In this document: piece after piece, positions 1 to 12,716 of the stretch
Numbering within the stretch: the first letter of the stretch is position 1
Layout of the letters: every line of letters begins with the position of its first letter
Source of the DNA: Ornithinimicrobium sp.
GTDB taxonomy: Bacteria > Actinomycetota > Actinomycetes > Actinomycetales > Dermatophilaceae
NCBI GenBank assembly: GCA_030145965.1
Contig: JASKZT010000087.1
Coordinates: forward strand, 1-15,587
Length of the DNA: 15,587 bases
Reading direction: 5' to 3'
Program-made: the position numbers and the translations under genes
The notes under the pieces: model-generated
Seen by the model: only the letters and a program-made list of their open reading frames with translations
Database searches by the model: none
Told to the model about the DNA's origin: nothing

Positions 1-737
<737 letters not shown>

Positions 738-764: not shown

Positions 765-1613
765 TCAGCCGGTCCCGGGGTCGAGACCGAACGTGGCCCG
801 CCAGATGGCGAGCGACTCCTCCGTGCTGCCTGCCGGGACGAACTCCAGCGCCACGGCCCCGTCGTAGCCCATCTGCAGGAGCTTCTCGACGAAGTCTCTG
901 ACGCCGCCGTCGGCACTGCCAGGAGCACCACGGCCCGGGACGTCGGCGACCTGGACATGACGCAGGTACGGCATGACGAAGTCCAGGTCTGCCAGCACGT
1001 CCTCCCCGTTGGTGGCCAGGTGGTACTGGTCCATGAGAAGGCCGATGCTGGACGGCTCGACATGATGGCGAACCCGCTCGATGACCTCGAGCGCGGCTCG
1101 GCTGGTCTGCACCGGGTAGTCCGGGAATCCGCTGAGGGGCTCGACGAGGATGGTGGCTCCCAGCGCCTCGGCTGCCCGTGCGGCGTACGTGAGCGCCTCC
1201 GTCGCAGCGGCGTCCTGCGCCTGCTCGGGAACCGAGGGGAGTCGGCGCCCGTAGGGGATGTTGAAGAGCCGGGTCCCCAGTCGCGACCCGATGCGCATGG
1301 CGACGTCGACGCTGTCCCGGAAGTCCTGCCCCTGGTCGGGGTGGGACACGACCCCACGGTCCCCGCCCGCCATGGTGCCGGCGTACAGGTTCATCGCGGT
1401 GAGCCTGACCCCGGCGGCGGTGATCGCCTCCACCAGGGCGTCGACCTCGTCCTCGGAGGGACGCGGTCGTCCGTCGAACGGCCACCAGTACTCCACCTCG
1501 GTGAAGCCCGCAGCGCGCGCGGCCGCGGGACGCTCCAGCAGGGGCAGCTCGGTGAACAGCAGGTGCAGGTTCGCCACCCACCTGAGGTGGGCGAGAGTCG
1601 TCGCGCCCGTCAT
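765..1613 (-). CDS. otnI: Hydroxypyruvate isomerase-like TIM barrel, probable 2-oxo-tetronate isomerase
   Basis: Member of the xylose-isomerase-like TIM barrel / hydroxypyruvate isomerase family, 282 aa. In tetronate catabolism the family member OtnI converts 2-oxo-tetronate to 3-oxo-tetronate, the substrate of the neighbouring kinase. The expected divalent-metal ligands can be placed by spacing against Hyi: Glu158 (LVEPLSG), Asp195 (MDQYH), Gln221 (HVQVADVPGR) and Glu257 (LEFVPAG). The QVAD-PGR-PG and E-x-PAG-T-E-E blocks are hallmarks of this subgroup. The ATG at 1613 overlaps the stop of otnC by 4 bases (ATGA). A longer frame to 1814 exists but would run through otnC and lacks family similarity. 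The first residues, RWVANLHLLFTELP, match the usual N-terminus. The OtnI role rests on its position beside otnK and otnC; plain hydroxypyruvate isomerase is the alternative. Confidence 0.88.
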   Translation of the reverse strand: MTGATTLAHLRWVANLHLLFTELPLLERPAAARAAGFTEVEYWWPFDGRPRPSEDEVDALVEAITAAGVRLTAMNLYAGTMAGGDRGVVSHPDQGQDFRDSVDVAMRIGSRLGTRLFNIPYGRRLPSVPEQAQDAAATEALTYAARAAEALGATILVEPLSGFPDYPVQTSRAALEVIERVRHHVEPSSIGLLMDQYHLATNGEDVLADLDFVMPYLRHVQVADVPGRGAPGSADGGVRDFVEKLLQMGYDGAVALEFVPAGSTEESLAIWRATFGLDPGTG

Positions 1614-2266
1614 GACCCCACCCTCCAGGGCTGTCGGTAGGTGGAGGTCAGGTGCTCGGACTCGCTGTCGGTGAGCACCCGCACGCCGGGCGCCCGGCCC
1701 ACCAGCATGGTCGTCTGGGCCGCCAGCTCGATCTCGATGGCCCGGTCCACGGCCTCGGCGACCGTGCGCCCGGCCACCACGGGGCCGTGGTTCTGCAGCA
1801 GAGCCCCATGACACTCGATGCTCAGCTCCCGCAGAAGGTCCGCCTGCGCGGCGTCACCCGGGGGGTGGTAGGGGATGAGCGGCAGGTTGCCCACCCTCAT
1901 GAGCAGGTACGGCGTGAGCGGAGGAAGCGCGCTGTGCTCCGTCCACGGGGGCAGGCACGAGGCGGCCACGGCGTGGGTGGAGTGCAGGTGGACGACGCAC
2001 ACCGCCTCCGGGTCGCGCAGGTAGAGGGCGGCGTGGAGCCCGTGCTCCTTGGAGGGCCGTGGTCCGGAGACGTGGGTCAGCCCGTCCTCGCCCAGGGCCA
2101 TCACGGACAGGTCGTCCTCCCGCAGCGACCCCAGCGGCTGCCCGGTGGGGCTGATGTGGACGTGGCCGTCGAGCCGCACCGAGATGTTGCCCGACGAGCC
2201 CGGCGAGAGTCCGAGCTCCTCCAGGCGCCGTCCGCCTCGGCAGGCCTCGCTCAGCAGGTCGCTCAT
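1610..2266 (-). CDS. otnC: Class II aldolase/adducin-family protein, probable 3-oxo-tetronate 4-phosphate decarboxylase
   Basis: 218-aa zinc enzyme of the class II aldolase (fuculose-phosphate aldolase) family. In OtnK/OtnC pathways it decarboxylates 3-oxo-tetronate 4-phosphate to dihydroxyacetone phosphate and CO2. Visible signature: GNIS at 26-29 and SPTG at 39-42 (phosphate and substrate loops), Glu74 in KEHGLHAALY (catalytic acid/base position), zinc ligands His93 and His95 in HLHSTHAV, and a third His160 in LLQNHG. The length matches the family. The ATG at 2266 overlaps the otnK stop by 4 bases, and its own stop overlaps the otnI start by 4, indicating translational coupling. The frame extends upstream to 2476 but that part lies inside otnK and is not aldolase-like. 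Sugar-phosphate aldolase or epimerase activity is the alternative; adjacency to the DUF1537 kinase favours OtnC. Confidence 0.9.
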   Translation of the reverse strand: MSDLLSEACRGGRRLEELGLSPGSSGNISVRLDGHVHISPTGQPLGSLREDDLSVMALGEDGLTHVSGPRPSKEHGLHAALYLRDPEAVCVVHLHSTHAVAASCLPPWTEHSALPPLTPYLLMRVGNLPLIPYHPPGDAAQADLLRELSIECHGALLQNHGPVVAGRTVAEAVDRAIEIELAAQTTMLVGRAPGVRVLTDSESEHLTSTYRQPWRVGS

Positions 2267-3528
2267 GCCAGCCCGCTCCACCCGGCCACGAAGAGGTCCT
2301 CGGTGCCGAAGTTCCCGGACTTCAGCACGAAGTTGTGGCGCCGACCGCCCGACGTGGTGCCGGCCAGCCACGACACTCCCGGGCTCAGCTGCTGCCCGAT
2401 CTCCAGTCGTGCGACACCCAGTGCCTCGAGCACCGCGCCGGAGGTCTCCCCACCGGCGACGATGAACTCCGTGCAACCGGCGTCCGACAGGGCCGTGGCC
2501 AACGTGGAGAACGCCGCCTCGATCCGCTGCGACACGTTCCCGCCCGTGGCTCGCGCGCGGGTGACGTCGTCGGGGGAGCCCACCGAGTAGACGAGGGCAG
2601 GTCGGTCGGGTTCCTCCCGCCAGGCGTCCTGCACCAGCCCCGTCACGCGGGCCACCTCCGACTCCGGCTCCGCCGTGTATGCCGCGACGTCGAGCTGCAC
2701 GTGCGGCATGACACCCAGCGCCCGGCCCACCTGACGCTGCGTCGCGCTGGAGGCGCTGCCGGAGAGGATGACCCGCCGTCCGGGGATCCGGGCAAGCAGG
2801 CGCGGTCGCGTCGGGCGGGCGGGCAGGCCGAGCGCGAGTCCCGAGCCGCCGGTCACCAGAGGGTCGTCCTGGGTCGCGGCGGCGACCACCGTCAGGTCGT
2901 CGTTGGTGACAGCGTCCACGACGACGAGGCGGTGGCCCTCCGCCTGCTGCTGCTCCAGCCCCGACCGGACGGCGCCCGGACCCTCGTGCACGACCTGGAG
3001 CGAAACCACCCCTACCGAGTGACGTGACTGAGGGTCCAGCAGCCGCGGCACCGACGAGTCCCGCATCGGGTTCAGCGGGTGGTCCTTCATCGGACTCTCG
3101 TGCAGCAGCTGGCCACCGACGAACAGGTGCCCCTGGTAGACGGTCCTGCCGTTGTCCGGGAAAGAAGGAACCACCACGGCGCGCGCGGCCCCGGTCAACG
3201 ACACCAGCTCGTCCATCACCGGGCCGATGTTGCCCTCGGAGGTGCTGTCGAAGGTCGAGCAGTACTTGTCGTAGATCTGCTCCACCCCCAGGTCGAGGAG
3301 GAAACGCCCGGCCCGGGTCGACTGGTCCCGGGCGAACGCGACCGGCGCCGACCTCGTCTTGAGGGCGACCACGACGGCGTCGTCCTCCTCGACCTCGGCC
3401 GCCATCGTGTCCTCCGGCAGCCCGAGCAGCACCGAGGTCCGCAGGCCACGTGCGGTCCAGTTGCCGGCGAGGTCGGTCGCCCCGGTGAAGTCGTCGGCGA
3501 CGGCTCCTCGCCTCACGTGTGTCGACAT
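2263..3528 (-). CDS. otnK: DUF1537 four-carbon acid sugar kinase, probable 3-oxo-tetronate kinase
   Basis: 421-aa cytosolic kinase of the four-carbon acid sugar kinase family (DUF1537). The family phosphorylates C4 acid sugars using ATP; OtnK makes 3-oxo-tetronate 4-phosphate. The N-terminal domain opens with the characteristic VADDFTGATD (residues 10-19). A substrate-domain block reads PDNGRTVYQGHLFVGGQLL followed by HPLNPMRDS, very like known OtnK proteins. The C-terminal nucleotide domain carries GGETSG (about 359-364) and KSGNFG (about 403-408). The ATG at 3528 shares one base with the dctP stop (TGATG). A GTG 9 codons earlier would add residues unlike the family. It is followed by otnC with a 4-base overlap, giving the canonical kinase-decarboxylase-isomerase cassette. 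It differs clearly from the second DUF1537 kinase at 8790. Confidence 0.93.
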   Translation of the reverse strand: MSTHVRRGAVADDFTGATDLAGNWTARGLRTSVLLGLPEDTMAAEVEEDDAVVVALKTRSAPVAFARDQSTRAGRFLLDLGVEQIYDKYCSTFDSTSEGNIGPVMDELVSLTGAARAVVVPSFPDNGRTVYQGHLFVGGQLLHESPMKDHPLNPMRDSSVPRLLDPQSRHSVGVVSLQVVHEGPGAVRSGLEQQQAEGHRLVVVDAVTNDDLTVVAAATQDDPLVTGGSGLALGLPARPTRPRLLARIPGRRVILSGSASSATQRQVGRALGVMPHVQLDVAAYTAEPESEVARVTGLVQDAWREEPDRPALVYSVGSPDDVTRARATGGNVSQRIEAAFSTLATALSDAGCTEFIVAGGETSGAVLEALGVARLEIGQQLSPGVSWLAGTTSGGRRHNFVLKSGNFGTEDLFVAGWSGLA

Positions 3529-4550
3529 CAGCCCTCGCGAATCTGCTCGACCCACTCCTGCACCTTCGGGTCAGCGTCGTTGACGACGTCGCTGGTGGCC
3601 TCGACCCACTTCTCGCGGTCCACCTCGGCGAAGGTGACCCCGTTCTCCTCGAGGAAGGCGATGTTCTCGTCCTGCTCCTCCAACGAGGTCTCGCGGGCCC
3701 ACTCCGACACCTCGGCGACGGACTCGTCGAAGATCGTGCGCGTCTCCTCGTCCCAGCCGTCGTAGTTCTCCGCCCACACCTGGAAGTGGTTGCTGCCGTA
3801 CAGGTGGTTGGTGTGCGCGATGTGGGGCGCGACCTCGTAGAAGGAGTTGAAGCGCGCCACGTTGACCGGGTTCTCCTGGGCCTCGATGGCTCCCTGCTCC
3901 AGTGCGGAGAACACCTCGTTGAAGGACAGCGGTGTGGGCGCCGTACCGAGCGCCTGCCACGTGCGGATGTAGGTCTCCTGGTTCGGGACCCGGATCTTCA
4001 GGCCCTTGGCGTCCTCCAGGCTGTTGATGGGCATGGTGCTGTTCAGCACCCGCGGTCCGCGGTAGATGTGACCGGCGAGGTAGAACCCGGAGTCCTCCTT
4101 GATGGCCTGGATCATCTCCTCGCCGAGGTCGCTGTCCCACGTGCTGAAGTAGTGCTCGGCGTCCTCGTACAGGAACGGAACCCCCTCGATGCCGGCCAGG
4201 CTGGAGTAGCGCTCGAGCGAGCCGATCGACTCGATGACGACGTCGACGGAGCCGAGCTCGAGGCCTTCCTGCATCTCCTCCCAGCTGCCGAGCTGCGAGG
4301 AGGGGAAGACCTCGAGCGTGATCTGGCCGTCGGACGCCTCCTCGAGGCTGTCCGCCAGACGCTCGGCGGCGCGGTTCTCCAGGCTCTCCGGGCCGTAGGA
4401 GTGGCCCAGGCGCCAGGTCATCTCCTCGCCGCCGCCGGTCTGCCCGCCGGCGTCGGCGCCTTCGGAGTCGGAGCCGGTGCTGCCGCCGCAGGCGGTGACC
4501 ACGAGCGCTCCGGCGGCGAGGAGGCTGGTGAGGGCGTATCGGTTCTTCAT
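3528..4550 (-). CDS. dctP: TRAP transporter solute-binding protein (DctP family), lipoprotein
   Basis: 340-aa extracytoplasmic substrate-binding subunit of a TRAP transporter, delivering an organic acid to the DctQM membrane part. The N-terminus is a lipoprotein signal: basic MKNR, a hydrophobic stretch, then lipobox VTAC with Cys21, and a Gly/Ser/Asp-rich linker to about residue 43. The core has the DctP landmarks: GLKIRVPNQETY with Arg187 at the position that grips the ligand carboxylate, then PTPLSFNEVFSALEQGAIEAQENP. A carboxylated sugar ligand is inferred from the catabolic neighbours. It is encoded after dctM with a 27-nt gap carrying an AGAGGAAA ribosome binding site, the only real spacer among dctQ, dctM and dctP. 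That suits a binding protein made in excess. Its stop overlaps otnK by one base. Confidence 0.95.
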   Translation of the reverse strand: MKNRYALTSLLAAGALVVTACGGSTGSDSEGADAGGQTGGGEEMTWRLGHSYGPESLENRAAERLADSLEEASDGQITLEVFPSSQLGSWEEMQEGLELGSVDVVIESIGSLERYSSLAGIEGVPFLYEDAEHYFSTWDSDLGEEMIQAIKEDSGFYLAGHIYRGPRVLNSTMPINSLEDAKGLKIRVPNQETYIRTWQALGTAPTPLSFNEVFSALEQGAIEAQENPVNVARFNSFYEVAPHIAHTNHLYGSNHFQVWAENYDGWDEETRTIFDESVAEVSEWARETSLEEQDENIAFLEENGVTFAEVDREKWVEATSDVVNDADPKVQEWVEQIREG

Positions 4551-4577
4551 GATGTGTTTCCTCTCGGGTGGGGACGT

Positions 4578-5828
4578 CTAGAACAGGAGCGGGACGTAGG
4601 TGACTACGGCCAGGAGCGCGATGGCGACGCCGAGCAGGGGGATGGCCGCTCGGACGGACTGGTGCAGCGGGATCCCGGCTATCCGGGTCGTGATGAGCAG
4701 CGAGATGCCGACCGGCGGGGTGAGCAGTCCGATCGCCAGGTTGATGACGATGATGAGGCCCAGGTGGATCGGGTCGATGCCCACGGCGACCGCGACCGGC
4801 AGCAGGATGGGGGTGAAGATGATGATGGCGGCGTTGCCCTCCAGGACCATCCCGATCAGCAGGAACAGGATGTTCACGACCAGCAGGATGACCACGGGGT
4901 TGGCGCTGACGCCGAGGATGTAGTCGGCGATGAGACGGGGGATGCCGCCGGTGACCAGGGCCCAGGAGTACAGCTGAGCCATGGCGATGATCAGCATGAT
5001 CGCGGCGATCAGCATGAGCGACTCGGTCATCGCGTGCTTGATCCTCGCCCAGGTGAGCTCGCGGTAGACGAGCCCACCCAGGATCACGGCGGTCAGCACC
5101 GCCACGGCACCGCCTTCGGTGGCGGTGAAGACGCCGAACCGGATGCCGCCCAGGACGATGATCGGGATGAGCAGCGCCAGCAGCGCGTCCTTCGCCGAGC
5201 GCAGGAACTCCCGGGTGCTGACCCTGTCCTCGGCGGGGTAACCCTTGATCCTCGCGATCACGTAGGCCGTCAGGATGTAGACGGCGCCGAACGCCACGCC
5301 GATGTAGAGGCCCCAGAAGAACAGCGTCCCGATGGAGACCTCGGCGGTGACGCCGTAGATGATGAGGTTGATGCTGGGGGGGATCACCACCGCGATGGTG
5401 GATGCCAGGGCCGTCAGCGCGGCGGCGAAGCCGGCGGGGTAACCGCGGTTGACCATCTGCGGGATGAGGATCTTGCCGGTCGCCGACGCGTCAGCGACGG
5501 AAGACCCGGAGATGCCGCCGAAGATCATGTTGGTGAGGATGTTCACGGCGGCCAGCCCACCGCGGATGCTGCCCACCGCGGCATACGCGAAGGTGATGAG
5601 CCGGCGTGTGATGCCGCCGCTGTTCATCAGCGAGCCGGCCATGACGAAGAGGGGGATGGCCATGAGGGGGAAGCTGCGCAGACCGGCGACGAGGCGCTGG
5701 GCGCCGATCTCGAGCGGGATGCCACCGGACAGCCACATGGACAGCAGGCTCGCGGCGCCGATGGCGATGGCGACGGGCGCGCCGATGAGGAGCAGGGCGG
5801 CGAAGCCGCCGCCGAGGATCACGGGCAT
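4578..5828 (-). CDS. dctM: TRAP transporter large permease subunit (DctM family)
   Basis: 416-aa multi-span inner-membrane protein, the large subunit of a TRAP transporter that couples ion gradients to uptake of the ligand delivered by DctP. Very hydrophobic, with roughly a dozen membrane segments. Family landmarks visible in order: the N-terminal AIPLFVMAGSLMNSGGI block, the first hairpin region GGISGSSVADASATG, the IPPSINLIIYG motif, GVFTATEGGAVAVL near the middle, and GLLTPPVGISLL near the C-terminus. Full length and intact. The ATG at 5828 follows the dctQ stop by 3 nt, so the membrane subunits are translationally linked. Specificity cannot be read from this subunit; it comes from DctP and the operon context. 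Confidence 0.96.
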   Translation of the reverse strand: MPVILGGGFAALLLIGAPVAIAIGAASLLSMWLSGGIPLEIGAQRLVAGLRSFPLMAIPLFVMAGSLMNSGGITRRLITFAYAAVGSIRGGLAAVNILTNMIFGGISGSSVADASATGKILIPQMVNRGYPAGFAAALTALASTIAVVIPPSINLIIYGVTAEVSIGTLFFWGLYIGVAFGAVYILTAYVIARIKGYPAEDRVSTREFLRSAKDALLALLIPIIVLGGIRFGVFTATEGGAVAVLTAVILGGLVYRELTWARIKHAMTESLMLIAAIMLIIAMAQLYSWALVTGGIPRLIADYILGVSANPVVILLVVNILFLLIGMVLEGNAAIIIFTPILLPVAVAVGIDPIHLGLIIVINLAIGLLTPPVGISLLITTRIAGIPLHQSVRAAIPLLGVAIALLAVVTYVPLLF

Positions 5829-5831
5829 GGT

Positions 5832-6356
5832 TCAGATCTCCGTCTCTGGAGTCTTGACGGCGTCTGCCACCGGGTCGGGCGCCGGGATCGGCACGACGAT
5901 CCGGTAGAGGATCAGGACGACGCACAGGGCGCACCCCACAGGCACCGCCAGGTAGAGGTAGCTGAGCGGGATCGTGGTGTTGAAGAGCATCGTCAGCCCC
6001 GACATCGACTGGCGCTCGGCCGAGCCCAGGAGCCGCATGGCGAAGAAGCCGACGACGCCCAGGGTCAGCGCGCTGATCCCGTCCGTCGCGACGCCGACGG
6101 CGCGCTGCACGCCGCGGGGCAGGGCGTCGACCGCGAAGCCGATGACGATGTGCTCACGTCGCAGGAAGGCGACAGGGACGGCGAGCATGGTCGACCAGAC
6201 GAAGCAGAAGATGGCCAGCTCCTCCGACCAGACGGTCGGTGCGTTCAGGAAGTAGCGGCTGACCACCTGGATGAGCAGGGACACCGTCGAGACCGTGATC
6301 AACAGGCCGGCGGCCATGAGGAGCACGTTGGCGACGATGTCGATGAGGCGCTTCAT
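5832..6356 (-). CDS. dctQ: TRAP transporter small permease subunit (DctQ family)
   Basis: 174-aa four-helix membrane protein forming the small TRAP subunit, which pairs with DctM. Hydrophobic segments lie near residues 8-28, 45-65, 85-110 and 130-155. The second region contains the DctQ-like RYFLNAPTVWSEELAIFCFVW block, with the conserved aromatic/acidic pattern before helix 2. The ATG at 6356 overlaps the dehydrogenase stop by one base (TGATG). A GTG one codon earlier (6359) is an equally coupled alternative, giving a 4-base overlap and one extra residue. The ribosome binding site is weak, consistent with translational coupling to the upstream gene. Confidence 0.92.
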   Translation of the reverse strand: MKRLIDIVANVLLMAAGLLITVSTVSLLIQVVSRYFLNAPTVWSEELAIFCFVWSTMLAVPVAFLRREHIVIGFAVDALPRGVQRAVGVATDGISALTLGVVGFFAMRLLGSAERQSMSGLTMLFNTTIPLSYLYLAVPVGCALCVVLILYRIVVPIPAPDPVADAVKTPETEI

Positions 6357-7372
6357 CACTCGGCACTTCTGCGCACGATGAGCTTCATGACGCCTCCGGG
6401 GCCCTCCGCGGCGAACTGGGTGATCTGCCGCGCCGCGTCGGTCCAGTCCTCGGTGTAGGTGACCATGCGCTTGACGAGGTCGGGCTTGGCCTCGATGACC
6501 TGCAGTGCTGCTGCGATGTCGTCCTTGGTGTACGTCGCCGTACCCGTCAGGGTGATCTCGCGGATCTGCAGGTCACCGACCGGGGTGGGGTGGTCGGAGC
6601 CGAAGACCGCGACCCGCACCACAGTTCCTCCCGTCGCTGCGGCCCTGACGGCCGTACCGACGAGGGCAGGCACGCCGGCCGCGAGGAACACGAGGTCGTA
6701 GGTGTTGCGCGGGAGGTCCTCCGCCTCGACGGCGGTCCTCGTCGCTCCGGCCGTCGTGAGCAGCTCGTGCAGGGGCTGGCGGGGCTCCACCACGGTGATG
6801 TCCAGCTCCGGGGCCTGCGCCGAGAGCACCGCCGTGATCAGCGTGCCGATGGTCCCGCCGCCGAGCACGAGAGCCCGGCGGACCGTGCCCAGCTGCCCGG
6901 CGCGCCGGACGGCGTGCACGGCGACCGCGACCGGCTCGGCGAAGGACAGCAGGCTCGCGTCGAGGGAGTCCGGCGCCGGGACCAGGGTGAACGTCGGCAC
7001 CTTCACGAAGTCCGCGAGGCCGCCGGGCCACGTGGGCACGCCGAGCATGGTCTTGTCGCTGCACAGGTGGTAGTCGCCGCGGGAGCACAGCTCGCACGAC
7101 TGGCAGGGCCACTGGGGGTCGATGACCACCCGGGTGCCGACCTGCAGCTCGTCTCCTGCATCGGGCCCGAGCTCGGCGACGACGCCGCCGACCTCGTGCC
7201 CGCTGATCAGCGGTGGTTTGCGGAACGGGTGCGTCCCGTGCAGGGCAGAGATGTCGGATCCGCAGACCCCGGCCGAGGTGACCTGGACCACGGCCTCCCC
7301 GGGGCCGGCGCTGGGCCTGGGGATGTCCGTGACGGTTGCCGTGCCGTCCTGCGCGAACTTGATGGCCTGCAA
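6356..7372 (-). CDS. Zinc-dependent medium-chain alcohol/polyol dehydrogenase, likely sugar-acid dehydrogenase
   Basis: 338-aa MDR-superfamily dehydrogenase, of the threonine/sorbitol-dehydrogenase type, that oxidises a secondary alcohol with NAD(P)+. Catalytic zinc ligands are visible at Cys37 (GVCGSD), His59/Glu60 (SGHE) and Glu146 (FAEPVAV). The structural zinc lobe has Cys90, Cys93, Cys96 and Cys104. The Rossmann loop is GGGTIG (171-176), and an acidic residue at the end of the next strand (VVEPRQ) favours NAD+. The chosen TTG start at 7372 has GAGGGG five bases upstream and gives the usual N-terminus QAIKFAQDG. A second TTG at 7387 is possible; the frame further up runs into the promoter. 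It is the first gene of the leftward operon and the most plausible entry oxidation step (sugar acid to oxo acid). No LtnD/DenD-type dehydrogenase is present in the window. Confidence 0.9.
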   Translation of the reverse strand: MQAIKFAQDGTATVTDIPRPSAGPGEAVVQVTSAGVCGSDISALHGTHPFRKPPLISGHEVGGVVAELGPDAGDELQVGTRVVIDPQWPCQSCELCSRGDYHLCSDKTMLGVPTWPGGLADFVKVPTFTLVPAPDSLDASLLSFAEPVAVAVHAVRRAGQLGTVRRALVLGGGTIGTLITAVLSAQAPELDITVVEPRQPLHELLTTAGATRTAVEAEDLPRNTYDLVFLAAGVPALVGTAVRAAATGGTVVRVAVFGSDHPTPVGDLQIREITLTGTATYTKDDIAAALQVIEAKPDLVKRMVTYTEDWTDAARQITQFAAEGPGGVMKLIVRRSAE

Positions 7373-7428
7373 TGGGGCCCCTCGCAATCTACTCCGGATA
7401 CAGCGGTGTATGTGGGTAGCAGTTCGAC

Positions 7429-7442
7429 TGTTCGATCGAACA
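7429..7442. promoter_or_regulatory. Putative DeoR-family operator (perfect 14-bp palindrome)
   Basis: TGTTCGATCGAACA is a perfect inverted repeat. Its half-sites equal those of the E. coli GlpR operator consensus (TGTTCG-N4-CGAACA), but with a 2-bp rather than 4-bp centre; GlpR is a DeoR-family repressor. An extra GTTCGA copy sits 8 bp upstream (7422-7427). The palindrome begins about 8 nt downstream of the candidate leftward -10, near the expected transcription start, a good place for repression. Binding by the locus DeoR regulator is inference. Confidence 0.65.
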
Positions 7443-7449
7443 TCATGTG

Positions 7450-7478
7450 ACCGTAACAAGTCCGGAACGTTACGTCAA
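7450..7478 (-). promoter_or_regulatory. Candidate promoter for the leftward dehydrogenase-TRAP-otn operon
   Basis: Read on the minus strand: -35 TTGACG (7478-7473), a 17-nt spacer and -10 TACGGT (7455-7450), which fits the TAnnnT pattern common in actinobacteria. Transcription would start near 7443, at the edge of the palindromic operator, leaving a leader of about 70 nt before the TTG at 7372. Confidence 0.45.
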
Positions 7479-7498
7479 GATGTCCTTGCATGTACTAT
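7470..7498 (+). promoter_or_regulatory. Candidate promoter for the rightward RLP-kinase-deoR operon
   Basis: -10 TACTAT (7493-7498) lies 17 nt after a poor -35, TTACGT (7470-7475). The -10 is the best on this strand. The weak -35 overlaps the right arm of the CGTAAC-N11-GTTACG dyad, so activator help is possible. The start point would fall at about 7505, inside the tandem TGTTCG sites. Confidence 0.35.
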
Positions 7499-7501
7499 GT
7501 C

Positions 7502-7519
7502 TGTTCGGTCATGTTCGAT
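7502..7519 (+). promoter_or_regulatory. Tandem TGTTCG half-sites, probable second DeoR-family operator
   Basis: TGTTCGGTCA is followed directly by TGTTCGATTG, so the TGTTCG core is repeated with a 10-bp period (7502 and 7512), one helical turn apart. The second copy shares TGTTCGAT with the palindrome at 7429. The pair overlaps the expected rightward start point and ends about 8 nt before the RLP ribosome binding site. Confidence 0.5.
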
Positions 7520-7539
7520 TGCGCACAAGGGAGTGTCAA

Positions 7540-8790
7540 GTGACGGATCAGCAGCACGTCGTCGCCACCTACAGCGTGGCGGTGGAGAAGGACCCGGAGG
7601 CCGCGGCGTCGATGCTCGCGGGGGAGCAGTCGGCCGGGACGTTCACCCAGGTCGCAGGCGACACCCCCGCGCTGCAGGAGCGCTTCGGTGCCCGCGTGCT
7701 CGACGTACGCGCGACAGGGCGCACCCGGGTGGCAGCCCGCGCCTACGACCGCCCACCCGGTGGCGCGGTGCCGGAGTACGACGTGCGGGTCGCCTACCCG
7801 TCGGGCAACTTCAGCGCCTCGGCCAGTCACCTGATGACCGTCGTCGCCGGCAACCTGTTCGAGCTCAAGGCACTGGCCGGTGTGCGCCTGGAGGACGTGG
7901 AGATCCCCGAGACCGTTGCTCGGCGGCTCCGGCTACCCATGGCCGCCGGCGTCCCTGGAAGCCGCCGGGCCATGCAGCGCCCGGAGGGGCCCATGCTGGG
8001 CACCATCGTCAAGCCCTCCGTCGGTCTGGACAACGAGCAGGTCACCCAGCTCACCGGGGTGCTGGCCGAGGCCGGCCTGGACCTGGTCAAGGACGACGAG
8101 CTGAATGCGGACCTGCTGCACGCCCCCTTGCTGGACCGGGTCAGCCGCGTCCAGGGCGAGCTGCGACGGCGCGGCGACCCCGGGACCCAGTACGCCTACA
8201 ACGTCACCGGAACCCTGTCGCACATGAAGCGCGCGGCCGACCACATCGAGTCCCTCGGAGGCACCACGGCCATGGTCGTCGTGCCGTGGGTCGGCCTCGA
8301 GGCCTTCGCCGAGCTGCGGAGCCACACGGCCCTGGTGCTGCACGCGCACCGTGCGGGGTGGGGAGCGCTCGACCGCTCCTCGGACGTGGGCGTGTCCTTC
8401 AAGGCCTACGCCAGGGTGCTGCGCCTCCTGGGAGCCGACCAGGTGCACGTGGGTGGACTGCGCAGCAAGTTCTGGGAGCACGCGTCGAGCATCCGCGGTT
8501 CGGTGGAGGCGCTGACCGTGCCGGATCCCGCGACCGCCCCGGCGCTCCCGGTGCTGTCCTCGGCCCAGACCGCCCTGACGGCCGCCGAGTCCTACCAGGC
8601 GCTGCAGACCCAGGACCTCCTCGTGATGGCCGGTGGAGGGATCCATGGCCATCCCGGCGGCCCGGCTGCGGGGGTACGCAGCATGCGTCTGGCCTGGGAC
8701 GCCGCCGTGAGCGGGACACCTCTCGCCGAGGTGGCGGCGCGTGAGCCGGACCTCGCCCGAGCCGTGGAGCACTTCTCGGAGCGCCCCTGA
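7540..8790 (+). CDS. RuBisCO-like protein (form IV RLP), possible 3-oxo-acid 4-phosphate decarboxylase or transcarboxylase/hydrolase
   Basis: 416-aa RuBisCO large-subunit homologue. The GTG start at 7540 has AAGGGAG six bases upstream; an in-frame GTG at 7447 would place the promoter inside the gene. Many RuBisCO positions can be matched (Rubisco numbering in brackets). Retained: Glu29 (E60), Thr34 (T65), Asn105 (N123), Lys158 (K175), the carbamylation/metal triad Lys184-Asp186-Glu187 (K201-D203-E204) in LVKDDE, His270-Arg271 (H294-R295), His303 (H327), loop-6 Lys310 (K334) and a GGG at 365-367 (403-405). Changed: Phe35 (W66), Ser160 (K177), Trp274 (H298), and SSA at 340-342 for SGG (379-381). 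It therefore keeps metal-enolate chemistry but probably not CO2 fixation. RLPs beside DUF1537 kinases act on 3-oxo-isoapionate 4-phosphate in D-apiose catabolism (OiaC decarboxylase, OiaX transcarboxylase/hydrolase). Which applies here cannot be told from sequence alone. Confidence 0.92.
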   Translation: MTDQQHVVATYSVAVEKDPEAAASMLAGEQSAGTFTQVAGDTPALQERFGARVLDVRATGRTRVAARAYDRPPGGAVPEYDVRVAYPSGNFSASASHLMTVVAGNLFELKALAGVRLEDVEIPETVARRLRLPMAAGVPGSRRAMQRPEGPMLGTIVKPSVGLDNEQVTQLTGVLAEAGLDLVKDDELNADLLHAPLLDRVSRVQGELRRRGDPGTQYAYNVTGTLSHMKRAADHIESLGGTTAMVVVPWVGLEAFAELRSHTALVLHAHRAGWGALDRSSDVGVSFKAYARVLRLLGADQVHVGGLRSKFWEHASSIRGSVEALTVPDPATAPALPVLSSAQTALTAAESYQALQTQDLLVMAGGGIHGHPGGPAAGVRSMRLAWDAAVSGTPLAEVAAREPDLARAVEHFSERP

Positions 8791-10058
8791 TGGAGATCTT
8801 CTTCGTCGCGGACGACTTCACCGGCGGGGTCGACGTCCTGCTCCAGGCGGCACGGTGCGGGCAACCGGCAAGCATGTTCCTCTCGGAGTCGGCCTTCCTC
8901 GCGGCCGACCCCGACCAGTTCAGCCCGTGCACCGGGATCGCCACGACGTTCCGCCGCTCCCCGCCGGCCGACGTCCGCGACACCCTGTCCAGGATCCTCG
9001 ACCATGGTGCCGGGCAGGATCCCCGGGTCGTGCAGTACAAGATCTGCAGCACGGCTGACTCCTCGCCGAGCCGGGGCTCGGTCCGCCCAGCGTTCGAGCA
9101 GTTCCTGCAGCGTGGTGCCGAACGGGTCGCGCTGCTCGTCGGGCAGCCGGGGCTCAGGCGCTACACCGCCTTCGCGAACCACTTCGCCAACGACCGGGGC
9201 GCCGTCTACCGGCTGGACCGGCAACCCACCATGGCCAACCACCCGAGCACCCCGATGCACGAGGCCGACCTGCGGCTGCACTTCGCCGAGCAGATCGGCG
9301 AGGAGGTCGGGAGCGTCACGCTGGAGGACATGCGCGAGCAGGAGAGCCTGGACCGAGCGTGGTCCCGAGAGGCCGAGGCCGGCAGGCGCATGGTCGTCCT
9401 GGACGTCGCGCGGCCGGAGGACCTGGCTACCCACGGCCGGGTGCTGGCCGAGGACCGTCCGGCGTACGTGATCGGCTCGGGGGGAGCGACCCTGGCGCTC
9501 GCGGCGGGGCTGGGCTGGTCGGAGGCGTCCGTGCACCACCAGCAGGCCGAGGCTGCGACGGGGCCCGTCCTCGTGGTGGTCGGCTCGTGCTCCCAGCTCA
9601 CCGCGGCGCAGGTCGACCACGTCGCCGACCGTGCCGGCTGGACGACGATCGCCTGGGACCCTGGTGAGGGGGAGGGGTCGATGGAGGTGGAGGTGCGCGA
9701 GCTGCTCGAGAGCGGTCAGCACGTGCTCGTGCACAGCGGCGGCGCTTCCGGTGCCCATCGACCGGACCTCGGGACGCGGGTCCCGCACGGGCTCGCCGGC
9801 ATCGTACGCTCGTCGCTCGGCAGCTTCGCCAGGCTCGTCGTCGCCGGCGGCGACACGTCGGGGGACGTGCTGACCCTCCTGGGTGCCACGAGCCTGACGA
9901 CCCTGGCGGTCCTCGACCGCGACACGTGTCTGTGCCTGGTCGACGGCATCATGGACCAGGAGATGGAGGTGGTCCTCAAGGGCGGCCAGATCGGCAGCGT
10001 GGACTTCTTCGTCCGCGCAGCGAGCGGTGACGAGAGCGACGGTGATGGGGACCAATAA
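8790..10058 (+). CDS. DUF1537 four-carbon acid sugar kinase, OiaK-like (RLP-associated)
   Basis: 422-aa kinase of the four-carbon acid sugar kinase family. The ATG at 8790 shares one base with the RLP stop (TGATG). The N-terminus carries VADDFTGGVD (6-15). The C-terminal nucleotide domain has GGDTSG, a later LKGGQIGSVDFF block in place of KSGNFG, and an acidic tail. The central substrate block reads QPGLRRYTAFANHFA followed by HPSTPMHEADL, whereas the otnK in this window has PDNGRTVYQGHLF and HPLNPMRDS. From memory, the LRRYTAF / TPM-EADL pattern is typical of DUF1537 kinases next to RLPs, such as 3-oxo-isoapionate kinase. It presumably makes the phosphorylated 3-oxo acid used by the RLP. Its last 14 bases overlap the deoR-family gene. 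The family is sure; the substrate is inferred. Confidence 0.92.
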   Translation: MEIFFVADDFTGGVDVLLQAARCGQPASMFLSESAFLAADPDQFSPCTGIATTFRRSPPADVRDTLSRILDHGAGQDPRVVQYKICSTADSSPSRGSVRPAFEQFLQRGAERVALLVGQPGLRRYTAFANHFANDRGAVYRLDRQPTMANHPSTPMHEADLRLHFAEQIGEEVGSVTLEDMREQESLDRAWSREAEAGRRMVVLDVARPEDLATHGRVLAEDRPAYVIGSGGATLALAAGLGWSEASVHHQQAEAATGPVLVVVGSCSQLTAAQVDHVADRAGWTTIAWDPGEGEGSMEVEVRELLESGQHVLVHSGGASGAHRPDLGTRVPHGLAGIVRSSLGSFARLVVAGGDTSGDVLTLLGATSLTTLAVLDRDTCLCLVDGIMDQEMEVVLKGGQIGSVDFFVRAASGDESDGDGDQ

Positions 10059-10812
10059 GCGCAAGCGGCAGGAGACGATCCTCGGCGCCCTCAGGCGTGA
10101 GGGGCGGGTCGACGTGACGGCCCTTGCGGCCACGCTCGAGGTGTCGCCCATGACCGTCCGGCGGGACATGGCGGACCTGAGCGGTCGGGGCCTGATCAAC
10201 CGCGTGCACGGCGGGGCGACGAGCCGACAGGATCCGACGATCCGGGCGGGCGTCATGCGGGAGGAGAAGCAGGCCCTGGCGCGCTGGGTCGTGGAGACCG
10301 TGATGGACGACCAGTTCCTGGGCCTCGACGTCGGCAGCACGTGCACCGCCATCGCCCGCGAGCTCGACGCTCGCGGCAACGTGACGGTGCTCTCCAACTC
10401 GCTGGAGGCGCTGCACGTCATGCGCAACCCCTCCGTGGAACGGTTGTGCGTCGCCGGCCAGATCAACGCGGAGGGGTCCATCGTGCCGCACGACGTCAGG
10501 GCCGCCCTCGAGCCCTACGTGCTGGACAAGGTCATCCTGGGGTGCGGCGGGGTCAGCGTCTCCCGCGGAGCGACCTATCACGAGGTGCAGGAGACGTTCT
10601 TCCGCAAGGCACTCATGGAGCACGCCTCAGAGGTTCTTCTCGTGGCCGACCACACGAAGCTGGGGCGAGAGTCGAGCTTCTCCCTGGGCAAGCTGTCTCT
10701 CATCGACGTCCTCGTGACGACGCGGGAGCCGGAGCGGTCGCTGGGCGAGGCGCTGTCGTCGGCGGGGGTGCAGGTCGAGGTCGTCGACGTACCTGTCGCT
10801 ACCTCTGCCTGA
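10045..10812 (+). CDS. DeoR/GlpR-family transcriptional regulator
   Basis: 255-aa regulator, the usual length for the family. An N-terminal DeoR winged helix-turn-helix lies at about residues 8-58, with recognition region LEVSPMTVRRDMADL and the diagnostic RVHGGA end. The C-terminal DeoR sensor domain (about 75-245) is related to sugar-phosphate isomerase folds and normally binds a phosphorylated sugar. Its DVGST loop is at 95-99, and downstream blocks include GCGGVS and VADHTKLG. The ATG at 10045 was chosen for the KRKRQETIL start. In-frame GTGs at 10042 and 10027 are alternatives with weaker context. It overlaps the kinase by 14 bases, so it is co-transcribed with the RLP operon. It probably represses both divergent operons through the TGTTCG sites and is relieved by a pathway phosphate intermediate (inference). 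Confidence 0.92.
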   Translation: MGTNKRKRQETILGALRREGRVDVTALAATLEVSPMTVRRDMADLSGRGLINRVHGGATSRQDPTIRAGVMREEKQALARWVVETVMDDQFLGLDVGSTCTAIARELDARGNVTVLSNSLEALHVMRNPSVERLCVAGQINAEGSIVPHDVRAALEPYVLDKVILGCGGVSVSRGATYHEVQETFFRKALMEHASEVLLVADHTKLGRESSFSLGKLSLIDVLVTTREPERSLGEALSSAGVQVEVVDVPVATSA

Positions 10813-10821
10813 CCACACTCG

Positions 10822-11694
10822 TCAGACGGTCCGGTCGTCAGGCGTCCCGACCTGGTGGTCCGGTCCGGGGGCCTCCGGCAGCTCGCTGGCGCGCACCAGG
10901 CGCAGCGCCGTGACGAAGATCAGGCCGCCCAGCATGTTGAGCGGCACGACGTACCAGAACCAGCCCAGCCACTCGGCGTACGAGACCGAGCCCTCCGCAT
11001 GGATCGCCCCGAAGATGAGGAACGAGTCCAGGACGGAGTGGAACAGGCTCAGCCCGGCCAGGAGAAGGCCGGCCGAGAACGCGGCGACGACCTTCACCCC
11101 GTCCGAGTCGGTCCCCGCCTGCATCCGCGTCAGGACGGTGATGACGATGCCACCGAGCAGCGACAGCGCCACGGATCGCAGGTCCAGCGGCGCATCGACG
11201 AAGTGCCGTGCGCTCTCGGTCAGCAGCGCCCCGAACTCGGGGAAGGCCTGTGCGACCAGCCACATGAACACCCACCCGCCGATCAGGTTGGTCACGAGCG
11301 TGGTCCCCCAGAGCCGCACCAGCTGCAGCACCGTCCCGCGGCGGGCGGACAGCGCCATGATCGGCAGGAGGAAGCCCTCGGTGAACAGCTCGCTGTGCGC
11401 CAGGTAGAGCGCCACGAGGCCGATGCCGAAGGCGAGCCCGGCCAGGAGATGGTTGTCGGTCTCGTGCAGCACCGCCAGGTAGGCGAGGATGCCCAGACCG
11501 ATCTCCATGCCCCCGAAGAGACCGGTGGTGATGAGGACCCGCCAGCTGCGGTGCAGCCGCGCGGCCCCCTGGTCGACCGCTCCCCGGAAGGACTCGACGA
11601 CCTCCTCCTCGACACCCTCGGCGGCCGGGTCCACGCGCCCATCGGCGTCCTCGGCGACCTTGTCGTTCGTGGGCCGTGCGGACGCCTCGCTCAT
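10822..11694 (-). CDS. Formate/nitrite transporter (FNT) family membrane channel
   Basis: 290-aa protein of the FNT family, pentameric channels for small monovalent anions such as formate, nitrite or hydrosulfide. An acidic hydrophilic N-terminus (about 48 residues, including AEGVEEEVVESF) precedes six hydrophobic segments. Family landmarks are the first half-helix loop region SELFTEGFLLPIM (101-113) and His219 in LFHSVLDSF, at the place of the central pore histidine. The SELFTE loop suggests the YfdC-like branch rather than FocA/NirC proper, a tentative subgroup call. The ATG at 11694 has GGAGG four bases upstream. It follows the small acidic gene by 11 nt on the same strand, so the two are likely co-transcribed. 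It ends 9 nt from the convergent deoR-family gene and has no visible link to sugar acids. Substrate unknown. Confidence 0.88.
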   Translation of the reverse strand: MSEASARPTNDKVAEDADGRVDPAAEGVEEEVVESFRGAVDQGAARLHRSWRVLITTGLFGGMEIGLGILAYLAVLHETDNHLLAGLAFGIGLVALYLAHSELFTEGFLLPIMALSARRGTVLQLVRLWGTTLVTNLIGGWVFMWLVAQAFPEFGALLTESARHFVDAPLDLRSVALSLLGGIVITVLTRMQAGTDSDGVKVVAAFSAGLLLAGLSLFHSVLDSFLIFGAIHAEGSVSYAEWLGWFWYVVPLNMLGGLIFVTALRLVRASELPEAPGPDHQVGTPDDRTV

Positions 11695-11705
11695 GGTGCC
11701 TCCGC

Positions 11706-11945
11706 TCAGGAAGTGCCGGGATCCTGGTTCGCCACGAACTGCACGAGCTCGGCCGGGACCGTCGCCTGCCCGTCCTCGGTCTGCGGCCACCAGTCGGCCG
11801 CGCGGGCCACGCCTGCGTCGCGCAGCTCGGTGACCATCCAGTCCGGCACCGGGTCGTCCTCGACGAGGCGGGCGGCCTCCTCCTGCTGCTCCGGCGACAG
11901 GGTCAGCCACCAGCTCTGCAGTGCGTCCTTCTCTTCGTCAGCCAT
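11706..11945 (-). CDS. Small acidic tryptophan-rich hypothetical protein
   Basis: 79-aa soluble protein of unknown function. It is strongly acidic (start MADEEKDAL, then SPEQQEEAARLVEDDP) with Trp at residues 12, 13, 36, 52 and 53, and no membrane segment, signal peptide or cysteine. The ATG at 11945 is chosen because codon use and composition change there; upstream codons are Arg/Pro-rich and non-coding in character. The base context GGGGGC directly before the ATG is a poor ribosome binding site, but a TACGGT (-10-like) lies 7 nt upstream, so the message may be leaderless. It is paired with the FNT gene 11 nt downstream. No family recognised. Confidence 0.7.
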   Translation of the reverse strand: MADEEKDALQSWWLTLSPEQQEEAARLVEDDPVPDWMVTELRDAGVARAADWWPQTEDGQATVPAELVQFVANQDPGTS

Positions 11946-12089
11946 GCCCCCGACCGTAGTCCCCGGGCCGACACGTCTCCTGCCGGTCCGACGCGCCACC
12001 CTGGTGGCGCGGCGGGGGCAGCAGCCGGCTGAGGGTCGGCCCTGCGGTGGCGCCGGTGCCATACTGAGCCACCCGACAGAAGAGGACCC
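11946..12089. promoter_or_regulatory. Divergent intergenic region with a perfect inverted repeat
   Basis: 144 bp between the small acidic gene (leftward) and the DedA gene (rightward). It must hold both promoters. Seen: TACGGT (11958-11953, minus strand) ending 7 nt before the leftward ATG; a weak extended -10 candidate, TGCCATACT (12057-12065), upstream of DedA; and the 11992-12011 palindrome. No convincing -35 boxes. Confidence 0.45.
11992..12011. repeat. Perfect 9-bp inverted repeat, 2-nt centre
   Basis: CGCGCCACC, then CT, then GGTGGCGCG. It sits in the divergent gap about 47 bp from the leftward start and 78 bp from the DedA start. There is no T-run after it and a 2-nt loop is too tight for a normal hairpin, so an operator for a dimeric regulator is more likely than a terminator. 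Confidence 0.55.
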
Positions 12090-12716
12090 ATGGTCGAGGC
12101 GCTCAACGCCTACATCGAGGCGAACGCCGACTCCGTGTGGCTGCTGCCGGTCGTGCTGCTGGTGTGCATCCTCGACGGCCTGCTCCCGCCCGCGCCCGCG
12201 GAGCCCGTCCTGGTCGCCCTCGGGGCCGTGGCGGTCGCGACGGGCCAGCCGGACGTCCTGGCGCTCATGGCCGTGGCGGCCGCGGGCGGCTTCCTCGGGG
12301 ACAACCTCGCCTACACCCTCGGCCGCTACACCAGGCTCGGCCGGCTGCGGGAGAGCCGTCGACCCAAGGTGCGCGGCTTCGTCACCTGGGTCGGGCGGCT
12401 CCTGCTGCGGCGCGGCGGCATGATCATCATCGCCTGCCGCTACGTCCCGGGCGGGCGTCAGATCGTCAACCTCACCGCGGGCGCCATGGAGTTCCCCCGC
12501 CGGCGGTTCATCCTCTTCGACGGCATCGCGGTCACCACCTGGGCCGCCTACAACGTCGGCATCGGTGCGCTGGCCGGCAGCTGGCTGGAGGACCAGCCGC
12601 TGTGGGGCGCGCTCGGCGCGGTCGTGCTCGCCCTGGCGCTGGGATGGCTGGCCGAGCGCGTCTCCCAGTGGTGGCGGGACCGGGCCGGGAGCGGGGTCGC
12701 CCAGGAGGCGGCGTAG
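12090..12716 (+). CDS. DedA family (SNARE-associated / VTT domain) membrane protein
   Basis: 208-aa integral membrane protein of the DedA/VTT family; characterised members flip polyprenyl phosphate or phospholipids and support envelope homeostasis. Visible signatures: LPPAPAEPVLVALG (31-45) in the first re-entrant region, GDNLAYTLGRYTR (70-82), and the diagnostic CRYVPGGRQIVNLTAGAMEF (116-135) with Arg117 and Arg123, then a C-terminal helical pair. The ATG at 12090 has AGAGGA 4 nt upstream. Full length. It is divergent from the FNT pair and is followed after a 106-nt gap by an MFS gene. Confidence 0.9.
   Translation: MVEALNAYIEANADSVWLLPVVLLVCILDGLLPPAPAEPVLVALGAVAVATGQPDVLALMAVAAAGGFLGDNLAYTLGRYTRLGRLRESRRPKVRGFVTWVGRLLLRRGGMIIIACRYVPGGRQIVNLTAGAMEFPRRRFILFDGIAVTTWAAYNVGIGALAGSWLEDQPLWGALGAVVLALALGWLAERVSQWWRDRAGSGVAQEAA

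What the first reader, a model, noticed from the sequence alone, without database searches (positions are those of the whole stretch)
765..10812. One divergent locus combines a complete otn cassette with an RLP/kinase pair
Seen: otnK-otnC-otnI plus TRAP genes and an MDR dehydrogenase on one strand, and RLP plus a second DUF1537 kinase plus a DeoR regulator on the other, sharing one control region. Known: OtnK/OtnC/OtnI turn C4 oxo acids into DHAP, and RLP/OiaK act on 3-oxo-isoapionate in D-apiose degradation. Inference: this locus processes two related sugar acids, or one branched acid through consecutive or parallel decarboxylation branches. I do not recall this exact combination as characterised.
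Basis: partly seen in the sequence, partly recalled or inferred. Interest (0 to 1): 0.75.

Follow-up and report, generated by a model that had tools for sequence, protein, structure and literature searches.

The report
Conserved two-branch sugar-acid gene locus
Ten neighbouring bacterial genes that stay together in related species seem to break down two kinds of small sugar acid through one shared entrance, one branch using a divergent relative of the carbon-fixing enzyme RuBisCO whose exact substrate is still unknown.

Summary
The gene layout is confirmed: otnI-otnC-otnK-TRAP P/M/Q-MDR on (-), RLP-DUF1537 kinase-DeoR on (+), 167 bp between. OtnK passes its curated cut-off; OtnC, OtnI, RLP (as OiaX) and kinase (as OiaK) do not. 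The same ten genes in the same order occur in two Ornithinimicrobium genomes (71-88% identity); contig-length matching suggests linkage for 10 of 13 further close RLPs. Among more distant RLPs it is rare (2 of 80 loci). The control region keeps two operator-like motifs 83-85 bp apart in all three loci. RLP and kinase sit on long branches, yet 18 of 19 recalled active-site positions equal those of four RLPs from other loci. No ApnO-like gene, the supplier of 3-oxo-isoapionate in apiose degradation, was detected in the two Ornithinimicrobium genomes, while four of five other RLP-bearing actinobacterial genomes had one. MDR-TRAP-otnK-otnC without RLP occurs in two genomes. Best reading: one co-regulated unit in which a shared transporter and MDR dehydrogenase feed two parallel kinase/C-C-cleaving branches, for linear 3-oxo-tetronate and a branched analogue. 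Substrates are inferred. New variant of a known kind.

The parts
765..1613 (-). OtnI-like isomerase (AP endonuclease 2 / xylose-isomerase-like TIM barrel)
   Evidence: Pfam PF01261; NCBIfam OxoTetrIsom 138.9 bits (cut-off 325), hydroxypyruvate isomerase 213.5 (cut-off 353); nearest solved 3ngf 91 bits and YgbM 1k77 71 bits; 77-79% identical copies in L127 and L128
1610..2266 (-). [quoted passage not shown]
   Evidence: NCBIfam OxoTetrPhDc 193.6 bits (cut-off 250), next family 83.3; Pfam Aldolase_II; start and stop
2263..3528 (-). OtnK, 3-oxo-tetronate 4-kinase (DUF1537)
   Evidence: NCBIfam OxoTetrKin 437.9 bits, above cut-off 350; solved relatives 3dqq, 5dmh, 1yzy at 281-292 bits
3528..4550 (-). 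TRAP transporter substrate-binding protein DctP
   Evidence: TIGR00787 202.5 bits, above cut-off 175; nearest solved 4pc9/4pcd
4578..5828 (-). TRAP transporter large permease DctM
   Evidence: TIGR00786 400.9 bits, above cut-off 268
5832..6359 (-). TRAP transporter small permease DctQ
   Evidence: Pfam DctQ 95.4 bits, above cut-off
6356..7372 (-). MDR zinc-dependent dehydrogenase, proposed 3-hydroxyl dehydrogenase shared by both branches
   Evidence: Pfam ADH_N and ADH_zinc_N; no NCBIfam cut-off met; same family as the MDR of RLP-less otn operons (361 and 331 bits), far from MDRs beside other RLPs (105-185 bits; tree)
7373..7539 (.). Shared divergent control region with two operator-like sites, TGTTCGATCGAACA at 7429-7442 and TGTTCGATTGCGCA at 7512-7525
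   Evidence: Only places matching TGTTCGWWCGMACA with up to 2 mismatches in the window; two such sites 85 bp apart in L127 and L128
7540..8790 (+). RuBisCO-like protein of a distinct clade
   Evidence: Pfam RuBisCO_large; OiaX 305.6 bits, cut-off 700; clade SH-aLRT 100, stem 1.17; 19 recalled active-site positions identical in 16 members; model pLDDT 90, best PDB 3nwr
8790..10058 (+). Second DUF1537 kinase, RLP-associated type
   Evidence: OiaK 210 bits, cut-off 700; 15 of 21 group-separating columns match the RLP-associated kinases, 1 matches OtnK, 5 are its own; clade stem 2.2
10045..10812 (+). DeoR-family transcriptional regulator
   Evidence: Pfam HTH_DeoR and DeoRC; 74-78% identical in L127 and L128 at the same place

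Best explanation
The locus is one co-regulated catabolic unit with a shared entrance and two parallel processing branches. The TRAP transporter imports small sugar acids. The single MDR dehydrogenase oxidises the C3 hydroxyl to a 3-oxo acid. Linear 3-oxo-tetronate is phosphorylated at C4 by OtnK and decarboxylated by OtnC to DHAP, with the OtnI-like isomerase admitting a 2-oxo isomer. A C2-branched analogue (3-oxo-isoapionate or a close relative, formed by the MDR and not by ApnO) is phosphorylated by the second kinase and cleaved or decarboxylated by the RLP. The DeoR protein represses both divergent transcripts from two operators and is released by an intermediate. Shown by computation: gene content, conserved order, retained RLP active-site positions, kinase subtype, two operator-like sites kept in three loci, ApnO not detected in two genomes with the locus. 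Inferred: every substrate, the MDR reaction, DeoR binding, and the reaction type of the RLP.
For: Ten genes in identical order in two Ornithinimicrobium genomes, 71-88% identical. Contig lengths place MDR or OtnK with the RLP in 10 of 13 other full-length clade members (10 of 14 with one fragment) and in 0 of 104 more distant RLPs. MDR-TRAP-OtnK-OtnC exists without RLP, second kinase, DeoR or detectable OtnI in two genomes, with a GntR-type regulator in the divergent position, so the MDR belongs to the tetronate module and is the only candidate dehydrogenase in the ten-gene unit for the RLP branch. ApnO-like gene: 0 of 2 genomes with the locus, 4 of 5 other RLP-bearing actinobacterial genomes, 4 of 4 proteobacterial genomes chosen as positive controls. 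Among 71 other RLP loci 23 carry an ApnO-like gene and 12 an MDR, 1 carries both and 37 neither. Two operator-like sites 83-85 bp apart in all three loci. Kinase and RLP on long branches, OtnK not. A DeoR repressor of an otn cluster that probably answers an intermediate is described for another bacterium (passages of PMC10580937).
Against: No substrate, enzyme activity or expression was measured. OtnC and OtnI miss their curated cut-offs. The MDR could serve the tetronate branch alone. Outside the stretches read, the Ornithinimicrobium genomes were searched only for OtnK, RLP and ApnO. ApnO was sought with one proteobacterial query at E 1e-5, so a distant or unrelated oxidoisomerase could be missed; Kribbella also lacks a match although it has an RLP and kinase. 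Long branches can have other causes; the kinase tree has three members of the clade and none of the sister RLP group's kinases, which lengthens its stem. The motif was written from the sites themselves, and the stretch between the MDR start and the first site is also well conserved (28 of 38 columns), so conservation does not single out the first site strongly. As many matches as found were reached by 1 of 200 shuffles in the window and in L127 and 0 of 200 in L128.
Confidence: 0.5

Rival explanations
1. Two independent modules for two unrelated acids (for example threonate or erythronate and an apionate-type acid) that are merely neighbours, each with its own oxidising enzyme, the one for the RLP branch lying elsewhere.
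For: This is seen in Rhodobacterales L075, where LtnD-OtnK-OtnC-OtnI and RLP-kinase-ApnO-like gene stand side by side, each with its own dehydrogenase. In 396 genomes of one order RLP and OtnK matches co-occur in 8 genomes but are at least 50 kb apart or on different contigs.
Against: In the window and both Ornithinimicrobium loci the RLP branch has no dehydrogenase of its own, and no ApnO-like gene is detected in those two genomes; gene order is conserved as one unit and the control region holds the same two sites.
Confidence: 0.2
2. The second kinase and RLP have been turned to a linear acid (another stereoisomer of 3-oxo-tetronate, or 3-oxo-tetronate itself) and give an alternative to OtnK/OtnC.
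For: Long branches of both proteins, the kinase leaving 7 of 58 near-invariant positions of its group, no ApnO detected, linkage to an otn operon.
Against: The kinase keeps 15 of 21 RLP-type columns and has 1 OtnK-type column; 18 of 19 recalled RLP active-site positions equal those of four RLPs from other loci, two of them (L075, L019) beside an ApnO-like gene.
Confidence: 0.15
3. It is an ordinary apiose (OiaK/OiaT or OiaX) or D-hamamelose branch whose upstream enzymes lie elsewhere in the genome.
For: Closest solved structure 3nwr is an RLP of the same family. RLPs acting on 3-oxo-isoapionate 4-phosphate in D-apiose breakdown are reported (passage of PMC6302742), as is an RLP in a D-hamamelose pathway with 3-phosphoglycerate and glycolate (PMC8914248).
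Against: OiaX and OiaK cut-offs missed by far (305.6 and 210 of 700), although ten other RLPs (352-462) and eight other kinases (196-570) miss them too; no ApnO-like gene in two genomes with the locus; no Gfo/Idh-type sugar dehydrogenase, lactonase or glycosidase among the ten conserved genes, though the MDR itself could act on a sugar. Hamamelose genes were not searched for.
Confidence: 0.13
4. Consecutive use: the product of the RLP branch is passed to OtnK/OtnC or the reverse.
For: Conserved linkage and shared control region; OtnI accompanies the RLP module in 3 of 3 composite loci and is undetected in 2 of 2 RLP-less MDR operons.
Against: Known RLP products of this family (3-phosphoglycerate with glycolate, or erythrulose 1-phosphate; recalled) are not substrates of OtnK or OtnC, and OtnC's product DHAP is not one of the RLP.
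Confidence: 0.02

Closest known systems
L-threonate / D-erythronate pathway with LtnD (or DenD), OtnI, OtnK, OtnC (Zhang et al. 2016, not seen; recalled and as described in passages of PMC12540250 and PMC10580937)
   Same: OtnK by curated cut-off; OtnC- and OtnI-like genes contiguous; a DeoR regulator is known for such a cluster
   Different: An MDR dehydrogenase and TRAP transporter and no LtnD; OtnC and OtnI below cut-off; an RLP-kinase pair shares the control region
D-apiose degradation by RLPs OiaX (decarboxylase) and OiaT (transcarboxylase/hydrolase) with kinase OiaK and oxidoisomerase ApnO (Carter et al. 2018; paper not held, recalled and via a passage of PMC6302742)
   Same: Adjacent RLP and DUF1537 kinase; recalled catalytic positions kept; kinase columns of the RLP-associated type
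   Different: Far below OiaX and OiaK cut-offs, long branches, no ApnO-like gene in the locus or in two genomes that carry it, fused to an otn operon
D-hamamelose pathway of Ochrobactrum anthropi with an RLP (Kim et al. 2018; paper not seen, cited in PMC8914248 and PMC10176493)
   Same: An RLP in catabolism of a branched sugar, with 3-phosphoglycerate and glycolate
   Different: Gene content could not be compared; no sugar-oxidising gene among the ten conserved genes unless the MDR is one
Rhodobacterales locus L075 with LtnD-OtnK-OtnC-OtnI beside RLP-kinase-ApnO-like gene (L061 shows OtnK-OtnC-OtnI and RLP, then its contig ends)
   Same: The same two modules side by side, with a regulator gene between them
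   Different: Different RLP clade (with Xanthobacteraceae and Burkholderiaceae); each module has its own dehydrogenase; regulator GntR-type by my reading of the sequence

Membership tests
OtnK, 3-oxo-tetronate kinase | NCBIfam NF043035 score at or above 350 bits | tested here: met
   437.9 bits
[quoted passage not shown]
   193.6 bits, still the best family; the L075 OtnC scores 292.1
OtnI, 2-oxo-tetronate isomerase | NCBIfam NF043033 score at or above 325 bits | tested here: not met
   138.9 bits; hydroxypyruvate isomerase TIGR03234 scores higher (213.5) and also misses its cut-off; the L075 OtnI scores 290.9 and misses too
OiaX, 3-oxo-isoapionate-4-phosphate decarboxylase | NCBIfam NF042437 score at or above 700 bits | tested here: not met
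   305.6 bits; ten other RLPs 352-462
OiaK, 3-oxo-isoapionate kinase | NCBIfam NF042436 score at or above 700 bits | tested here: not met
   210 bits; eight other RLP-associated kinases 196-570
OiaT, transcarboxylase/hydrolase | Formation of 3-phosphoglycerate and glycolate (recalled) | not testable with these tools
   No OiaT model appeared among the NCBIfam hits
D-apiose/apionate degradation locus | ApnO oxidoisomerase available | tested here: not met
   None in the window or, at E 1e-5 with one query, in two Ornithinimicrobium genomes with the locus; found in 8 of the other 10 genomes, 4 of these chosen as positive controls. The ApnO identity of the query is recalled (Pfam PGDH_C)
L-threonate pathway (LtnD type) | LtnD present | tested here: not met
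   No LtnD-like gene in the window; the rest of the genomes was not searched
RuBisCO-like proteins (fold and catalytic residues) | RuBisCO fold with carbamylation lysine and metal ligands (recalled spinach K201, D203, E204) | tested here: met
   Pfam, model and 3nwr match, residues; the K177 position is Ser, as in the four comparison RLPs
DeoR-regulated divergent unit | Regulator binds both promoters | not tested
   Two operator-like sites kept in three loci only

The most novel reading that the evidence does not exclude
The RLP-kinase pair of this clade has a new function: C-C cleavage of a phosphorylated C2-branched 3-oxo sugar acid that the shared MDR makes directly from an imported 2-C-branched tetronate-type acid. 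This would be a further RLP catabolic route that needs neither ApnO nor sugar oxidation and borrows its transporter, dehydrogenase and regulator from tetronate catabolism.
Probability: 0.35. Interest if true: 0.75.

Novelty: new variant of a known kind. Interest (0 to 1): 0.6.

Why it matters
RuBisCO-like proteins have few known jobs. A clade that keeps the catalytic residues, sits on a long branch together with its kinase, and is tied to a tetronate operon in genomes without a detected ApnO gives a testable case for a further RLP reaction. It would also warn against naming every RLP-kinase pair an apiose gene set, and it offers two genome-sequenced Ornithinimicrobium species in which it can be tested.

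Tried and rejected
Asymmetry argument withdrawn: from the contig-length comparison I first took Ornithinimicrobium cavernae to carry the MDR-otn operon without the RLP, because no listed RLP had its contig length (notes). Direct search showed the RLP 4 kb from its OtnK. The RLP protein search therefore misses members, and the unmatched RLPs are not evidence of absence.

Searches for close RLPs in other groups failed: 17 of 396 genomes at E 1e-30, best 43% identity; 7 of 151; 0 of 1; 2 of 213 at E 1e-60, 42-43% identity; 0 of 13. One search (3 of 24 genomes with OtnK at E 1e-110) gave only hits already known. A flanking VTT-domain protein was used to choose the family in which Ornithinimicrobium was found (4 of 396 genomes at E 1e-50). 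The viral-contig scan found nothing. The plasmid search found 358 records, all under 60% identity. No sigma-70 promoter or terminator pattern was found around the control region. A paper search for the operator half-site gave nothing usable in its listing. The idea that the acid is hamamelonate (2-carboxyarabinitol) is kept only inside the apiose/hamamelose rival: a hamamelose RLP pathway is already reported.

Rows dropped and choices made: seven distant RLPs (L096, L097, L110-L114) were left out; five of them served as outgroup. One search used the 71 loci of at least 15 kb. One of 105 distant contig lengths was not typed. The kinase group was gathered by best match to the window's second kinase, which favours likeness to it. 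Some OtnK matches are weak (down to E 2e-63) and may be other DUF1537 kinases. Trees are 'quick' (SH-aLRT only) and of chosen subsets: 74 RLPs, 53 MDRs, 41 and 34 kinases.
Full report
WHAT IS THERE. The window carries two divergent, tightly packed operons. On (-): MDR dehydrogenase, TRAP Q, M, P, OtnK, OtnC-like, OtnI-like. On (+): RLP, a second DUF1537 kinase, DeoR. The ten frames are intact. Against NCBIfam, OtnK passes its cut-off (437.9 of 350), OtnC (193.6 of 250) and OtnI (138.9 of 325) do not, the RLP reaches 305.6 of 700 for OiaX, and the second kinase 210 of 700 for OiaK. Ten RLPs and eight kinases from other loci also miss the OiaX and OiaK cut-offs (352-462 and 196-570), so missing them shows distance, not by itself a different function.

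IS THE COMBINATION REAL. A search of 186 genomes of one actinobacterial family found OtnK relatives (E at most 1e-100) in three. Two of them, Ornithinimicrobium cavernae and O. faecis (named by equal contig length with records), also carry the RLP at 78% and 75% identity about 4 kb away; the third has no RLP match at E 1e-10. Reading 19.5 kb around each OtnK showed the same ten genes in the same order and orientation in these two, with protein identities of 71-88%. Three of the window's flanking proteins were sought there and not found. For 13 further full-length close RLPs (12 from metagenomes, one from Georgenia muralis), the MDR list or the OtnK list holds a protein on a contig of identical length in 10 (MDR 8, OtnK 3, both 1), against 0 of 104 more distant RLPs; a fourteenth, fragmentary RLP had no match. 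This evidence is indirect and has false negatives, as O. cavernae showed.

HOW RARE ELSEWHERE. Of 80 loci with RLPs of 36-46% identity, 2 (both Rhodobacterales, L061 and L075) have otnK, otnC and otnI beside the RLP. Among 396 genomes of one order, RLP matches (E at most 1e-30) occur in 17 and OtnK matches (E at most 1e-40) in 29; 8 genomes have both, at least 50 kb apart or on different contigs. In L075 the two modules keep their own dehydrogenases, LtnD (400.8 bits, cut-off 350) and an ApnO-like protein; the L061 contig ends behind the RLP.

WHICH PARTS BELONG TOGETHER. Two other genomes, G071 and G063, have MDR, TRAP Q-M-P, OtnK and OtnC in the same order without RLP, second kinase, DeoR or a detectable OtnI; a GntR-type regulator stands divergently in their place (Pfam GntR and FCD for the G071 one), and neither genome has an RLP match. 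The MDR is thus part of the tetronate module. It is distant from the MDRs beside RLPs of Kribbella, Streptomyces, Rhodococcus and Bacillota. In the composite loci it is the only dehydrogenase among the ten genes, so it is the candidate for the RLP branch too. Among 71 RLP loci of at least 15 kb, 23 hold an ApnO-like gene, 12 an MDR, 1 both and 37 neither; within 6 kb of the RLP, 31 of 71 have none of the oxidoreductases tested.

THE RLP AND ITS KINASE. Fourteen RLPs including the window form a clade with SH-aLRT 100 and a stem of 1.17 changes per column, where the median end branch is 0.17. At 48 positions one residue is held by at least 13 of the 14 and by under 10% of 203 other RLPs; some lie in a poorly aligned stretch, and none is one of the 19 active-site positions. 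Those nineteen positions, recalled from plant RuBisCO, are identical in 16 clade members, and 18 of them are the same in four RLPs of other loci; only the G381 equivalent differs (Ala against Gly; the sister group also has Ala). A model from 30 sequences has mean pLDDT 90.2, and its best PDB match is the RLP 3nwr (TM 0.88/0.90). At 21 columns that separate 93 RLP-associated kinases from 46 OtnKs, the second kinase follows the former at 15, OtnK at 1 and neither at 5; it departs from its group at 7 of 58 near-invariant positions. Its clade has a stem of 2.2, against 0.19 for the OtnK of the same three loci; the tree programme warns of long branches, and kinases of the sister RLP group are missing. 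Conserved catalysis, a fast stem and ordinary divergence within the clade suggest a change of substrate followed by constraint; this is inference.

NO APIONATE ENTRY DETECTED. With the ApnO-like protein of L075 as query, no match at E 1e-5 was found in the two Ornithinimicrobium genomes, in the RLP-less relative G694 or in Kribbella; the other eight of twelve genomes matched. Four of those eight were chosen as positive controls because an ApnO-like gene stands near their RLP; the other four are actinobacteria with RLPs (1e-54 to 1e-56). That this protein is ApnO is recalled; its position beside RLP and kinase and the Pfam domain PGDH_C fit.

REGULATION. The 167-bp control region holds the palindrome TGTTCGATCGAACA (7429-7442) and a related site (7512-7525). 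The motif TGTTCGWWCGMACA, written from these sites, matches with up to 2 mismatches only at these two places in the window, and only at two places 85 bp apart in the control regions of L127 and L128. Between the three loci 12 of 14 and 12 of 16 columns of the sites are identical, against 17 of 66 between them; but the stretch between the MDR start and the first site is also conserved (28 of 38). The first site lies 57 bases from the MDR start, the second just before the RLP ribosome-binding site. Such half-sites recall operators of GlpR-type DeoR proteins (recalled, not tested). A DeoR repressor of an erythronate/threonate otn cluster, apparently answering an intermediate, is described in PMC10580937 (passages seen).

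CHEMISTRY. 3-oxo-tetronate 4-phosphate and 3-oxo-isoapionate 4-phosphate differ only by a C2 hydroxymethyl group (recalled structures). One 3-hydroxyl dehydrogenase and one transporter could therefore serve both, while the C4 kinase and the C-C-cleaving enzyme differ. This is the basis of the two-branch model. The nearest solved TRAP binding proteins, 4pc9/4pcd, bind aldonic acids as I recall.

LITERATURE. Carter et al. 2018 (apiose) is not held; I used one passage in PMC6302742 and recall. The threonate pathway was seen in passages of PMC12540250. A hamamelose RLP (Kim et al. 2018, not seen) is cited in PMC8914248 (one section and passages), in PMC10176493 and in PMC8319343 (passages and reference lists). 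In the open-licence library, a search for RuBisCO-like with threonate gave one paper, PMC8914248, which does not describe this locus in the parts read; a search for four-carbon acid sugar kinase, otnK and RuBisCO terms gave 23 papers, 20 seen in the listing only and none about it by title or abstract start; Ornithinimicrobium with RuBisCO-like gave none.

VERDICT. The two-acid reading is plausible; the apiose equation is doubtful. New variant of a known kind.

Noticed in passing
window 3-689 (-): Aldo/keto reductase (Pfam PF00248) running off the left end, 75 bp downstream of OtnI; not found in the 19.5 kb read in each of the two Ornithinimicrobium genomes.
   Followed up: partly
window 10822-14025: Right flank: formate/nitrite transporter family (-), a small protein without Pfam match (-), VTT-domain (DedA-type) protein (+) and an MFS transporter (+). 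The first and third were sought and not found beside the Ornithinimicrobium loci; the other two were not sought.
   Followed up: partly
L061 6515-7783: The otnK of this Roseicyclus MAG matches as two separate open frames; damage or assembly error not distinguished, left as it is.
   Followed up: no
L016, L020, L021, L022: Bacillota loci with RLP, kinase, an MDR and a weakly OtnC-like class II aldolase (49-55 bits); all but L021 also have TRAP genes; possibly a further RLP-based sugar-acid locus.
   Followed up: no
L121 4244-18271: Streptomyces plasmid locus with MDR-RLP-kinase among glycoside hydrolases of families 28, 78 and 2, suggesting plant cell-wall sugars.
   Followed up: no
L122 10001-20549: Rhodococcus plasmid locus with RLP-kinase-MDR near glycerate kinase and D-glycerate dehydrogenase.
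   Followed up: no
L123 8401-15499: Rhodobacteraceae plasmid with Gfo/Idh oxidoreductase, NanR, RLP, kinase and a NAD(P)-binding protein that I take for ApnO in a row, with insertion sequences on both sides.
   Followed up: partly
71 RLP loci: 31 of 71 RLP loci have neither the ApnO-, MDR-, SDR-, Gfo/Idh- nor LtnD-type gene tested within 6 kb, so the oxidising partner of many RLPs is unknown.
   Followed up: no
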